From Gaeumannomyces sp. JS-464 (lineage: Eukaryota > Ascomycota > Sordariomycetes > Magnaporthales > Magnaporthaceae): 64,000 nt of DNA. Below the pieces are notes generated by a model, which saw only the letters and a list, made by a program, of their open reading frames with translations, searched no databases and was not told the origin of the DNA. The translations under genes were made by a program, and so were the position numbers. Below, one piece after another: positions 36,003 through 39,754 of this stretch (the stretch's first letter is position 1; each line of letters opens with the position of its first letter). The DNA is taken from NCBI GenBank assembly GCA_002197995.1, contig NGZR01000004.1:2418001-2482000 (forward strand). Direction: 5' to 3'.

Positions 36003-37283
36003 ATGGCAGCCCAGCCGTTCCTCCCCTTTACCAAGCCCGAGTTCGACGAGCCCACCATCGCGGCCGTTGTCGAGGTTCTGCGTTCGGGCTGGGTCACCAG
36101 CGGACCCAGGATGCTCGAGTTCGAGGCGGCGCTGTCGACCTACTTCGGCGGGCGCCCTGTCCGCACCTTCAACTCGGGCACCGCTTCGCTCGAGGTCGCC
36201 CTGCGCGTCGCGGGGATCGGGCCGGGGGACGAGGTCATCACCTCCCCGCTGTCCTGGGTCGCGACGGCCAACGCGATCCTCGCCGTTGGCGCCACGCCCG
36301 TTTTTGTCGATATCGACCCGGCCACGCGGAACCTGGACCTGGACCAGGTCGAGCGCGCCATTACAGAGCGAACCCGCGCCATCATGCCTGTGCACCTCGC
36401 GGGGCTGCCTGTCGACATGGACAGGCTCTACGCGCTGGCAGCAGCAGGAGCGCCGGACGGCACGACCAGCAGCAGTTGCCGTCGTCCTCTCCGGGTCATC
36501 GAGGACGCCGCGCAGGCCATCGGGTCGACGTGGCGGGGCCGGCGCATCGGCTCCTTTGGCGACCTTGTCTCCTTCAGCTTCCAGGCGACCAAGAACGTCA
36601 CGACGGGCGAGGGCGGCTGCCTGGTCCTCAACGACGAGGCCGAGGCGCGCCTGGCCGAGAAGCTGCGCCTGCAGGGCCTGACGCGGACTGGCACCGACGG
36701 CTTCGAGGTCGACGTGCTGGGCGGCAAGTCCAACATGACGGACCTGGCGGCCGCCATTGGCCTGGCGCAGCTGGGGAGGGCCGACGCCATCGCCGCCAAG
36801 CGCCGCCGGCTCGTGCGACGCTACTTCACCGCCTTTGGGGACCCCGCCGCCTTTGAGCGCGTCTATGGTGCACAACTGCCGCCGCCGCCCTGCTCCTGTG
36901 CTGCGGGGGCCTGCGGCTGCGACGACGCCACCACCACCACCACCACCACCGGAGCTGGGGGAGGGGAAACCCCGGACGGCAGCAGTAGCAGCAACTGGCA
37001 CCTGTTCCAGCTGGTCCTGCCGTCTCGGATAGGCCGCGCCACTTTCATCCAGCAGATGCGGGAGCAGCACCAGATCGGCGTCGGGGTCCACTACCCGGCG
37101 ATCCACCTATTCCAGCTTTACCGCGCGCGAGGCTTTGGGGACGACATGTTCCCCGTCGCTGAGCGCGTGGGCCGCCAGATCGTCACCCTGCCGCTTTTCA
37201 ACTCCATGACCGAGGCCGACGTCGACCGAGTGGCGGGCGCCATCAAGACGCTCCTGAGACCCTCTCCCCCGTCCGACCAGTAG
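36003..37283 (+). CDS. DegT/DnrJ/EryC1/StrS aminotransferase, ArnB-like
   Basis: An intact, intronless 426-aa PLP-dependent sugar aminotransferase. In bacteria ArnB transfers an amino group from glutamate to UDP-4-keto-pentose, giving UDP-4-amino-arabinose. Family landmarks in order: the opening LPFTKPEFDEPTI and SGWVTSGP, the phosphate-binding SGTAS (58-62), EDAAQA with D168 contacting the cofactor, the Schiff-base Lys197 in SFQATKNVTTGEGG, SNMTDLAAAIGLAQL, and the C-terminal NWHLFQLVL and GVGVHYPAIHLFQLY. Bacterial ArnB is about 380 aa; the excess is two low-complexity inserts, near residues 149-161 and 290-330, the latter with poly-Pro and a Thr run. The start was placed at the ATG in CAGCCATGGC; a longer in-frame start exists at 35955. 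It lies 486 bases upstream of the arnA-like gene on the same strand. Absence of introns suggests transfer from bacteria. Confidence 0.88.
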   Translation: MAAQPFLPFTKPEFDEPTIAAVVEVLRSGWVTSGPRMLEFEAALSTYFGGRPVRTFNSGTASLEVALRVAGIGPGDEVITSPLSWVATANAILAVGATPVFVDIDPATRNLDLDQVERAITERTRAIMPVHLAGLPVDMDRLYALAAAGAPDGTTSSSCRRPLRVIEDAAQAIGSTWRGRRIGSFGDLVSFSFQATKNVTTGEGGCLVLNDEAEARLAEKLRLQGLTRTGTDGFEVDVLGGKSNMTDLAAAIGLAQLGRADAIAAKRRRLVRRYFTAFGDPAAFERVYGAQLPPPPCSCAAGACGCDDATTTTTTTGAGGGETPDGSSSSNWHLFQLVLPSRIGRATFIQQMREQHQIGVGVHYPAIHLFQLYRARGFGDDMFPVAERVGRQIVTLPLFNSMTEADVDRVAGAIKTLLRPSPPSDQ

Positions 37284-37769
37284 TTTGGCTCTATTGCCTT
37301 GGTCGTGTGACTCGCACCTGACTTGGCCTGCCACTCAGATTTTTCTCTTTTCTACTTTGCTTTTATGTTATGCATGCTCCTCTTTGCCTTGTTGGGCTAC
37401 TGCGTTCCTGCGCGGGTGTCACACGTGGCTTGAGACAACACTAGATACCTTTTTTTCTAGTGCAAAATGCGCGGCACTTCCGTCATTGGGCTGTCCCTTC
37501 TCGAGATCGGCGTCGTCGTGAGCTGTGATGTCGCATGCGTGACCACGATTCGCGCATCTCCAAGCTGTGCTCCTGAGGAGAGGAGCGCGAAGGATAGGTT
37601 GGGTCTTTATATATTATAAATATGTATATACCCAACCTAGCATAACATAATATCTCAATCTTCTGTGTGTCTGCCATCGTTGGTAAATCTTGTCAAGTTT
37701 CGACATCCATTACCATACCTATAAGCGAGGAGAAAAGGAAGACTCCAGCTCCTAAACACGTCCGTCAGG
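37284..37769. other. Spacer between the two arn-like genes
   Basis: 486 bases between the arnB-like stop and the arnA-like start. AT-rich, with a TATATATTATAAATATG stretch at 37608-37624 that could serve the downstream promoter. The length is enough for separate fungal transcription units. No gene seen. Confidence 0.6.
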
Positions 37770-39754
37770 ATGCCGTCCTCCTCGTCCCCTTCGGCCGTCG
37801 TCTTCGCTTACCACGACGTTGGAGTCCGCTGCCTGAAAGTGCTGCTCGCCCGCGGAGTCAACGTCCCGTTAGTTATCACGCACGAAGATGATCCGTCCGA
37901 GAACATCTGGTTCGAGTCCGTCGCCTCGCTCTGCAAGGAGCGCAGTATCCCCTACATAGCGCCGCCCGAGTCGGCAGAGCTGCTAGAGAGAGTGACGTCC
38001 CTCCGGCCCCGACTGGATCTTCAGCTTCTACTACCGGCACCTGCTGCCGACGAGCATTCTGCGGCAGGCCAAAACACGGCGCCTTCAACATGCACGGCTC
38101 GCTCTGCCCAAGTACCGCGGCCGCGTCCCCGTCAACTGGGCGGTCCTGCACGGGGAGGTCGAAACAGGCGCGACGCTCCACGAGATGGTTGCAAAGCCGG
38201 ACGCCGGCTACATCGTCACGCAGGTCTCCGTGCCCATCCTCCCGGACGACACGGCCTTTGTCGTGTTCGGCAAGGTGGTGACGGCGGCCGAGAAGGCCCT
38301 GTGGGACGTCCTGCCGGCCATGCTCGCCGGCGACATACCCAAGCACGATAACGACCTCTCGCGGGGCGGCTACTTTGGCGGGAGGAAGCCCGAGGACGGA
38401 CGCATAGACTGGTCGCGGCCGGCGCAAGAGGTCTACAACCTCTACCGGGCCGTGGCGCCACCGTACCCTGGAGCCTTCACCGAGCTGCGCGGCCGCAGGT
38501 TCGTCATCGCGAGGGCGAGGCTGCCGGGCCGTCGAGAACCGGATCTCTCTCCGGGACTCCACGTCGTCAACGGAGAGATCCTCGCGGTGTGTGGCGACGG
38601 AGAGGTGGTGACAGTCCTGCAGCTCCTAGAGGATGGCCATGACGTTTCCCCGGATGAGCTGAACGAGGTTCTGGGCGAGGAAGGGGCCGCAAGACCAAAG
38701 CGGATCCTCATCCTCGGGGTCAACGGCTTCATCGGCCATCACCTGCTGAGACGGATCCTGCAGACGACGGACTGGCACGTGCGGGGCCTGGACGTGAGCG
38801 CGCACCGAGTCGCCCATCTCGCGGAGCAGCACGGCGGCCGCTTCCTCTTCAGGCAGGGCGACATGAACAGCAACAGCCGGTGGATTGAAGAGCAGGTGCG
38901 GGCGTGCGACGTCGTGATCCCGCTCACGGCCATCGCGACGCCGCGCACCTACGTCGAGGACCCGCTCTCCGTGTTCGAGCTGGACTTTGAGGCGCACCTC
39001 GCCATCGTGCGGTGGACGACGCGGCACAAGAAGCGGCTCGTGTTCCCCTCGACGTCCGAGGTGTACGGGCTGTGCCGGGACGCCGAGTTCAACGCCGACA
39101 CGGTCGGAGCTGGCGTACGGCCCGATCTGCAAGACGCGCTGGATCTACGCGTGCTCCAAGCAGCTGATGGACCGGGTCATCTGGGCGCACGGCAGCCAGC
39201 GCGGGCTCGACTTCACCCTCTTCCGGCCCTTCAACTGGGTCGGCCCGGGCCTGGACTCGCTCGGGCGGCGCCGGGCGGGCGGCGCCCGCGTGACGACGCG
39301 GTTCCTGGGAAACCTGCTGCGCGGCGAGGACCTGGCGCTGTCGGACGGCGGGCGCCAGCGGCGCGCCTTCACGGCCGTCGACGACGGCGTCGACGCGCTG
39401 GTGCGCATCGTGGCCGACGGCGAGGGCATCACGCGCGGCAAGATCTACAACATCGGCAGCCCCGAAAACGACTGCTCGGTCCGCGAGCTCGCCGGGCGCA
39501 TGCTGGACGCGGCCAGGCGCACGCCCGAGCTGGCCGCCAGGTGCGCCGGCGTCAAGGCCGTCGAGGCCGGGTCGCGGGCCCTGTACGGCGAGGGCTACCA
39601 GGACGTGCCGCGCCGCGTGCCCTGCATCGCAAACACCTGCCGCGACCTGGGCTGGAGCCCGTCTGTGTCTCTGGACGAATGCGTGCGCGCCATGGTGGAT
39701 GCCATAGTCCCATTTGCCAGGGACGCTGCACAGGTGGACGAGCCTTTGTGGTAG
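37770..39754 (+). CDS. ArnA-like bifunctional formyltransferase / UDP-glucuronate decarboxylase, frame-disrupted
   Basis: Resembles bacterial ArnA along its whole length. The N-terminal part, from VVFAYHDVGVRCL on, is a 10-formyl-THF-dependent formyltransferase with catalytic N and H in FNMHGS and D in KPDAGYIV. The C-terminal part is an NAD-dependent dehydrogenase: Rossmann motif LGVNGFIGHHL (about 38710-38745), PSTSEVYG, the YxxxK pair in WIYACSKQL, and GYQDVPRRVPCI, whose second R aligns with E. coli R619, the residue typical of decarboxylation. No introns. Four indels interrupt the frame: an extra C at 38007-38010, an extra A at 38071-38074, a missing C near 38103 and an extra G at 39102-39103. 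Corrected, the length is 660 aa, the same as E. coli ArnA. As written it would not yield a full product. Error or real pseudogene is undecided; the intact residues on all sides favour error. Confidence 0.9.

What the first reader, a model, noticed from the sequence alone, without database searches (positions are those of the whole stretch)
36003..39754. Bacterial-type arnB-arnA pair in a fungal chromosome
Two adjacent, same-strand, intronless genes encode an ArnB-like aminotransferase and a full-length ArnA-like fusion, flanked on both sides by intron-bearing fungal genes. All three activities that turn UDP-glucuronic acid into UDP-4-formamido-arabinose in Gram-negative bacteria keep their signatures: decarboxylase (TSEVYG, YxxxK, the R619 equivalent), transaminase Lys197, formyltransferase N/H/D. 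Fungi have no lipid A, so the product must serve something else: cell wall, a glycolipid, a glycan or a secondary metabolite. Horizontal transfer is the simplest origin. I have not verified whether such pairs are already described in fungi.
Basis: partly seen in the sequence, partly recalled or inferred. Interest (0 to 1): 0.92.

Follow-up and report, generated by a model that had tools for sequence, protein, structure and literature searches.

The report
Fungal genes for a bacterial sugar
Two neighbouring genes in a fungus related to root-dwelling species were acquired from a bacterium and appear to make an amino sugar that bacteria use to armour their outer membrane, so the fungus must be using it for something else, still unknown.

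Summary
ArnB (36003-37283) is one intact frame. The same assembly shows 12 intronless frame changes in 34.7 kb of conserved genes, and the ArnA pieces look constrained, so assembly error is the likelier cause. Orthologues in G. hyphopodioides (670 aa) and G. tritici (678 aa) are single proteins. The sampled fungal ArnA proteins form one clade (100/100) that falls, with weaker support, among Oxalobacteraceae; the sampled fungal ArnB proteins, Fusarium culmorum included, form one clade (100/100): one old bacterial acquisition. In 35 of 35 bacterial loci with both genes complete, formyltransferase and decarboxylase are separate, so the fungal fusion is independent of enteric ArnA. A UDP-glucose dehydrogenase is present; ArnD and ArnT gave no match, ArnC a weak one. 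Most likely product: UDP-4-formamido-arabinose, without the lipid A arm. The decarboxylase half was probably flagged in Fusarium in 2012; my ten literature searches showed nothing on the pair.

The parts
36003..37283 (+). ArnB-like sugar-nucleotide aminotransferase, one open frame, 426 aa from ATG 36003
   Evidence: PF01041, 354 bits; solved ArnB 4lc3, 478.7 bits; orthologues P0002 and P0003
37284..37769 (+). 486-bp spacer, 47.7% GC against 62-72% in ArnB and the ArnA pieces; room for a promoter of its own for the second gene (inferred)
37770..38009 (+). ArnA-like gene, piece in frame 0: start of the formyltransferase domain
   Evidence: (PRK06988, 100 bits on 85 aa)
37996..39105 (+). ArnA-like gene, piece in frame 1: rest of the formyltransferase (with a short stretch near 38.08-38.11 kb out of frame that holds the catalytic Asn/His) and first part of the decarboxylase with TSEVYG
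39107..39754 (+). ArnA-like gene, piece in frame 2: rest of the decarboxylase with YxxxK and the Arg619 equivalent, up to the stop

Best explanation
A soluble half of a betaproteobacterial 4-amino-arabinose pathway was acquired once by a Sordariomycete fungus and is kept as two neighbouring intronless nuclear genes. The host's own UDP-glucose dehydrogenase supplies UDP-glucuronic acid. The C-terminal half of the fused protein oxidises and decarboxylates it to UDP-4-keto-arabinose (inferred from family and conserved catalytic residues). ArnB transaminates that to UDP-4-amino-4-deoxy-L-arabinose (inferred). The N-terminal half formylates it with 10-formyl-tetrahydrofolate, which pulls the unfavourable transamination forward (inferred from the bacterial enzymes; recalled). 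The cell thus makes UDP-4-formamido-arabinose in the cytosol without the bacterial lipid-carrier arm (ArnC, ArnD, ArnT), and an unknown fungal glycosyltransferase puts the sugar on a glycan, glycolipid or small molecule. In the window's genome the second gene is interrupted by frame changes that are more likely assembly errors than real decay.
For: Orthologues of both genes in two Gaeumannomyces species, ArnA intact at 670 and 678 aa. One clade of sampled fungal ArnA (100/100) and one of sampled fungal ArnB with Fusarium culmorum (100/100). In 13 fungal or fungal-clade ArnA rows (8 named, 5 unnamed), TSE, Y, K and N492 are kept in 13 of 13, Arg619 in 12 of 12 that reach it, and formyltransferase N/H/D in 12 of 13. 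Both halves of P0121 and P0127 pass the curated cut-offs of PRK06988 and PRK11908. A UDP-glucose 6-dehydrogenase gene lies at C1:6.51 Mb. Frame breaks: 12 intronless frame changes in 34,683 matched bases of conserved genes; seen in the same way ArnA shows 2 in about 2.0 kb. At sites invariant elsewhere the window pieces deviate no more than the intact copies. Of changes that can be placed, 15 fall on the window's ArnA branch, against 17 on the path to G. hyphopodioides and 19 on that to G. tritici.
Against: No biochemical or expression data. [quoted passage not shown] Neither ArnB nor ArnA passes the enteric equivalog cut-off. Thozetella has lost the formyltransferase His and Asp but keeps the decarboxylase residues, so formylation is not essential everywhere. 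ArnA as assembled has four frame changes in all; three of the four are of the surplus-base type (my reading), while 8 of the 12 background changes are of the one-missing-base type. By plain identity the window's ArnA pieces are further from G. hyphopodioides (83-86%) than G. tritici is (88-95%), while for ArnB the two distances are alike (91.6% and 91.9%); 42 of the 69 sites behind this could not be placed on a branch. Real decay in this strain is thus not excluded. No glycosyltransferase was seen beside the pair.
Confidence: 0.7

Rival explanations
1. The main product is UDP-xylose or UDP-4-keto-pentose, as in the Ralstonia enzyme of the PRK11908 type; transamination and formylation are minor or have been repurposed.
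For: The decarboxylase half scores 487 and 505 bits against PRK11908 (cut-off 294) in P0121 and P0127. Passages of PMC5607165 say that the Ralstonia enzyme makes UDP-xylose as a by-product and that ArnA can too. Thozetella has lost two formyltransferase catalytic residues.
Against: ArnB is kept beside it in Gaeumannomyces and occurs in Fusarium; formyltransferase residues are kept in 12 of 13 fungal-clade rows.
Confidence: 0.15
2. The second gene of this strain is a real, recent pseudogene: the fungus has lost the ArnA enzyme and ArnB is an orphan on the way out.
For: Four frame changes in about 2.0 kb, of a somewhat different type from 8 of the 12 background changes; larger plain divergence of ArnA than of ArnB from the relatives.
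Against: No stop codon inside the three homologous pieces; deviations at 0 of 16, 1 of 86 (next to a break) and 6 of 62 invariant sites, 5 of those 6 shared with the intact orthologues; no excess of changes on the window branch among those that can be placed (15 against 17 and 19); conserved chaperone genes of the same assembly are broken too.
Confidence: 0.2
3. Bacterial contamination or an assembly chimera.
For: Intronless genes of bacterial type.
Against: The same pair under consecutive locus tags in G. hyphopodioides and intact proteins in G. tritici; gene pieces of 62-72% GC with spacer and flanks of 48-51%; the window lies in a contig of over 5 Mb (C29).
Confidence: 0.01
4. An old fungal family of other function, not a transfer.
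For: Fungal ArnA occurs in several orders, so it is not a recent arrival.
Against: The ArnA clade lies on the betaproteobacterial side, apart from enteric ArnA; in the two capped ArnB lists, apart from the Gaeumannomyces proteins and one Fusarium protein, every organism named is bacterial.
Confidence: 0.03

Closest known systems
Arn operon of Oxalobacteraceae and relatives (arnT-SMR-arnB-arnC-formyltransferase-decarboxylase-arnD)
   Same: Nearest named bacterial relatives of both proteins: ArnB 58-63% in the 80 loci kept; formyltransferase part up to 70% and decarboxylase part up to 59% to the split bacterial proteins; arnB stands before the other two genes
   Different: In bacteria formyltransferase and decarboxylase are separate genes in 35 of 35 complete loci, with arnC between them and arnB; in the fungus they are fused, arnC is not between, and ArnD and ArnT gave no match
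Enteric ArnA (bifunctional, E. coli type; PDB 1z7e) and ArnB (PDB 1mdo)
   Same: Same domain order and same catalytic residues in the intact fungal orthologues
   Different: At most 50% in the formyltransferase and 44-52% in the decarboxylase parts (five enteric-type rows); separate clade 100/100; the equivalog cut-offs are not reached
[quoted passage not shown]
   Same: The decarboxylase half of the intact fungal proteins passes this model
   Different: Here fused to a formyltransferase and paired with ArnB
FPSE_11221 of Fusarium pseudograminearum (Gardiner et al. 2012, PMC3460631, Table 2)
   Same: Listed as a possible bacterial-origin NAD(P)-dependent epimerase, with reciprocal best matches only in F. 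graminearum and G. graminis var. tritici among 27 fungi, and best bacterial match in Oxalobacteraceae at 58%
   Different: Named only as an epimerase; 'formyl' does not occur in the main text. That it is the decarboxylase half is my inference from the bit scores

Membership tests
ArnB (UDP-Ara4N aminotransferase) | DegT/DnrJ/EryC1 fold-family match | tested here: met
   PF01041, 354 bits, cut-off 19.8
ArnB (UDP-Ara4N aminotransferase) | PLP-binding lysine (K197 here) | tested here: met
   invariant in all 13 rows of A1 and aligned with solved ArnB chains; that this lysine binds PLP is recalled
ArnB (UDP-Ara4N aminotransferase) | NCBIfam equivalog cut-off (PRK11658, 631 bits) | tested here: not met
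   277.2 bits; best solved relative is nevertheless a protein deposited as ArnB, 4lc3, 478.7 bits
ArnB (UDP-Ara4N aminotransferase) | Activity on UDP-4-keto-arabinose | not testable with these tools
   needs an enzyme assay
ArnA (bifunctional, enteric type) | Formyltransferase and decarboxylase fused in one open frame | tested here: not met
   not met in the window as assembled; met in P0121 and P0122
ArnA (bifunctional, enteric type) | Catalytic N102, H104, D140 of the formyltransferase | tested here: inconclusive
   D140 in frame; N and H encoded only out of frame in the window; 12 of 13 other fungal-clade rows keep all three. Residue roles are recalled
ArnA (bifunctional, enteric type) | Decarboxylase T432, S433, E434, Y463, K467, R619 | tested here: met
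   all present, though in two frames, in the window; in the other fungal-clade rows 13 of 13 (R619 in 12 of 12 that reach it). Residue roles are recalled
ArnA (bifunctional, enteric type) | NCBIfam equivalog cut-off (PRK08125, 777 bits) | tested here: not met
   P0121 675.7, P0127 700.5 bits; the window has no single protein to score
[quoted passage not shown]
   P0121 453.9 and 487.1; P0127 443.8 and 504.9. The window's pieces, scored apart, each stay below the cut-offs (100 and 275.4; 190.6 and 275.4)
Ara4N lipid A modification pathway | ArnC, ArnD and ArnT present | tested here: inconclusive
   ArnC query: one weak match of 92 aa at 36%; ArnD and ArnT: none, searches without a positive control

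The most novel reading that the evidence does not exclude
Sordariomycetes, including root and cereal fungi, make a bacterial-type 4-formamido- or 4-amino-arabinose and attach it to their own surface glycoconjugates or secreted metabolites. This would be a eukaryotic counterpart of the charge-changing sugar with which Gram-negative bacteria resist cationic antimicrobial peptides, built from an independently fused ArnA and with a new, unidentified fungal glycosyltransferase in place of ArnC and ArnT.
Probability: 0.2. Interest if true: 0.85.

Novelty: new variant of a known kind. Interest (0 to 1): 0.62.

Why it matters
Amino-arabinose made from UDP-glucuronic acid is known as a bacterial outer-membrane sugar. 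A pair of enzymes for it, kept under constraint in several orders of fungi, predicts a nucleotide sugar and a glycoconjugate in eukaryotes, and it names the genes with which to look for them. It also gives an independent fusion of the two ArnA activities, which argues that coupling decarboxylation and formylation is selected for, and a case where the soluble half of a pathway was kept and the membrane half was not.

Tried and rejected
Contamination or chimera: rejected by the same pair in other Gaeumannomyces assemblies. Introns as the cause of the ArnA frame changes: rejected, because the matches to P0121 overlap in the DNA with no room for an intron. Descent from enteric ArnA: rejected by tree and identities. 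A neighbouring biosynthetic cluster: none seen in the 30 of 78 ORFs (180 aa or more) that were scanned with Pfam, besides the pair itself. Repeats of 25 bp or more within 34-42 kb, or tRNA genes in the window, as traces of insertion: none found (ARAGORN ran with the bacterial code). Structure of ArnB: the model was poor (mean pLDDT 59.7, alignment of 13 rows), so no fold search was made. Literature: ten searches listed no title or abstract start on fungal ArnA or ArnB; some lists were cut (20 of 93, 15 of 38 and 12 of 20), and only open-licence PMC papers are held. Of the papers opened I saw passages of PMC11905480, PMC4876562, PMC5607165 and PMC4790934 (in the last only 'aRNA'), and section 7 plus passages of PMC3460631. 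Rows left out: the background count used 9 of the 13 rows and none of the 48 ketoacyl-synthase matches, some of which are broken too; the tree left out the unnamed fused-looking proteins P0135, P0137, P0138, P0139 and P0142.
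Full report
WHAT IS THERE. The window is part of a 53.0 Mb genome in 34 contigs. ArnB, 36003-37283, is one open frame and matches PF01041 at 354 bits. The second gene starts at 37770 and ends at 39754, but no frame spans it. Searching the own genome with the intact G. hyphopodioides protein gives three matches, all at this place and in three frames: residues 3-84, 80-454 and 435-670. 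Reading the DNA shows frame changes near 38.01 and 39.11 kb and a compensated pair near 38.08 and 38.11 kb. The compensated stretch holds the formyltransferase Asn and His, so frame 1 does not encode them.

ARE THE BREAKS REAL? I measured the background in conserved genes of the same genome. HSP70, CCT/HSP60, chitin synthase (9 of the 13 matches) and glucan synthase matches cover 34,683 bases in 25 gene places. They show 12 frame changes with no room for an intron: 2, 9, 1 and 0. One of the 12 has a 31-base surplus and could be a tiny intron; 8 of the 12 are one missing base. Conserved chaperone genes are not expected to be broken so often, so the assembly carries indel errors. Seen in the same way, ArnA shows 2 changes in about 2.0 kb, because the compensated pair would escape that method; about 0.7 would be expected. 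By raw count it has 4, three of them of the surplus-base type as I read; that is a point for real decay. So is plain identity: the ArnA pieces are 83-86% identical to G. hyphopodioides while G. tritici is 88-95% identical to it; for ArnB the figures are 91.6% and 91.9%. Against decay: where changes can be placed with outgroups, 15 fall on the window branch, 17 on the path to G. hyphopodioides (12 on the shared stem and 5 of its own) and 19 on that to G. tritici (12 and 7), in 617 columns; for ArnB the counts are 6, 6 and 11 in 408 columns. Of the 69 sites where the window differs from both agreeing relatives, 42 could not be placed. At sites invariant in 23 bacterial and 7 other fungal-clade rows, the window pieces deviate at 0 of 16, 1 of 86 (beside a break) and 6 of 62 sites, 5 of the last shared with the two intact orthologues, which deviate at 0, 2 and 7, and at 0, 2 and 8. 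I judge assembly error the likelier, decay about one in five.

WHO ELSE HAS IT. ArnB: the three best hits are an unnamed assembly (85%), G. hyphopodioides RB595_002991 (86%) and G. tritici GGTG_00721 (80%); the next in the list of 120 are bacterial or unnamed at 60-65%, those named being mostly betaproteobacteria. ArnA: G. hyphopodioides RB595_002992 (670 aa, 81% over the piece searched) and G. tritici RB598_003001 (678 aa, 78%), then Aphanocladium album, Fusarium graminearum (a cluster of 20 sequences), Cladobotryum mycophilum, Thozetella sp., Madurella mycetomatis and M. fahalii, all fused, mixed with unnamed proteins; named enteric-type ArnA proteins stand at 48% or less. The five genera that I looked up are Sordariomycetes of the orders Magnaporthales, Sordariales, Chaetosphaeriales and Hypocreales; Fusarium I take as Hypocreales from general knowledge. 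A further search tuned to longer proteins found a Fusarium culmorum ArnB (P0245, 61%).

ORIGIN. The ArnB alignment fetched 80 named bacterial loci (the best 80 of 501). Of 82 loci examined (with two plasmid loci), 35 hold complete formyltransferase and decarboxylase genes, and in 35 of 35 these are separate genes; the neighbours that were found follow the order arnT-SMR-arnB-arnC-formyltransferase-decarboxylase-arnD. A tree of 46 rows places 14 rows (9 named fungal, the window piece among them, and 5 unnamed) in one clade (100/100), apart from the 5 enteric-type rows (100/100). The forks that set it among Oxalobacteraceae are weaker (91/78, 84/59, 93/83), its nearest sister is not resolved, and long branches and an odd letter make-up of the two Gaeumannomyces rows are flagged. 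The ArnB tree of 42 rows puts the four Gaeumannomyces-type rows, F. culmorum and two unnamed proteins in one clade against 35 bacterial rows (100/100); that tree is unrooted. A quick tree of about 300 rows gave the same 7 rows, support 87. Two unnamed metagenome proteins (P0126, P0128) are fused too but fall among Janthinobacterium-like rows, so they do not explain the fungal fusion. In the ArnA tree Gaeumannomyces groups with Madurella (83/92), and the Hypocreales group together with three unnamed rows (97/98). This fits an early transfer with many losses, though transfer between fungi is not excluded.

HOW IT LIKELY WORKS. Shown: conserved catalytic residues in 13 fungal-clade ArnA rows besides the window; both halves of the intact proteins pass the curated models of the betaproteobacterial enzymes; a UDP-glucose 6-dehydrogenase gene at C1:6.51 Mb, matching solved UGDH over residues 79-439 at up to 406 bits, its last part not matched in that frame. 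Inferred: UDP-Glc to UDP-GlcA to UDP-4-keto-arabinose to UDP-Ara4N to UDP-Ara4FN, all in the cytosol. From bacterial work (recalled, not read here) the transamination is unfavourable and formylation drains it. ArnA plus ArnB is therefore the smallest set that can build up the product, which would explain why just these two persist. The bacterial carrier arm is not seen: ArnD none, ArnT none, ArnC only a weak match of the kind expected from a eukaryotic family-2 transferase (no positive controls). Thozetella keeps the decarboxylase residues but has lost the formyltransferase His and Asp, so the product may differ between lineages.

WHAT WAS KNOWN. Gardiner et al. 2012 (PMC3460631) list FPSE_11221, an NAD(P)-dependent epimerase, among six F. 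pseudograminearum genes of possible bacterial origin: F. graminearum 577 bits, G. graminis var. tritici 336, Oxalobacteraceae 403 at 58% identity, and no entry for Magnaporthe oryzae or M. poae. The F. graminearum decarboxylase half gives 375 bits to G. tritici and 455 (62%) to the best bacterial protein here, in the same proportion, so FPSE_11221 is probably this half, in a shorter gene model; I could not check the sequence. Database names such as 'Bifunctional polymyxin resistance protein ArnA [Madurella mycetomatis]' exist. The ten literature searches named under Tried and rejected listed no paper on the pair, the fusion or the pathway in fungi.

SCORES. Bacterial origin of the pair: nearly certain. 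Making UDP-Ara4FN in the genus: likely. Use of the product: unknown. Interest 0.62: surprising and directly testable, but the enzymes are of a known kind and one half was probably flagged before.

Noticed in passing
own genome, C1:7197157-7199045, C12:4147931-4149481, C23:1547021-1548488, C23:4056369-4058018, C23:7045506-7047112, C32:399696-401243, C1:4643729-4645248: HSP70, CCT and chitin synthase genes with intronless frame changes: the assembly carries indel errors, so any 'pseudogene' called from it needs a check.
   Followed up: yes
own genome, C30:4401-9426 (L097): A second UDP-glucose dehydrogenase-type gene lies one to two kb from a chitin-synthase-like family-2 glycosyltransferase near a contig end: possibly a polysaccharide locus using UDP-GlcA.
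   Followed up: partly
L014, L019, L022 and 31 other Pseudomonas loci: All 34 Pseudomonas loci among the 80 carry a close ArnB relative (59-61%) but showed no ArnC, formyltransferase, decarboxylase, ArnD or ArnT match in the DNA held, up to 8 kb on each side; the 6 put into a tree group with Collimonas ArnB. Role unknown.
   Followed up: no
P0133 (Thozetella sp.): ArnA with H104 to Q and D140 to G but an intact set of decarboxylase residues: a natural loss of the formyltransferase site.
   Followed up: partly
window, about 36450-36490 and 36882-36990: In-frame, low-complexity insertions in Gaeumannomyces-type ArnB, of different length between the four sequences; the first is missing in two of the four, and both are missing in F. 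culmorum.
   Followed up: no
P0126, P0128 (metagenome proteins): Oxalobacteraceae-like formyltransferase-decarboxylase fusions with an internal Met at the join: a second fusion, or a metagenome assembly error.
   Followed up: partly
own genome, C32:1813961-1814763: Ketoacyl synthase domain split over two alternating frames: broken polyketide synthase or assembly error.
   Followed up: no
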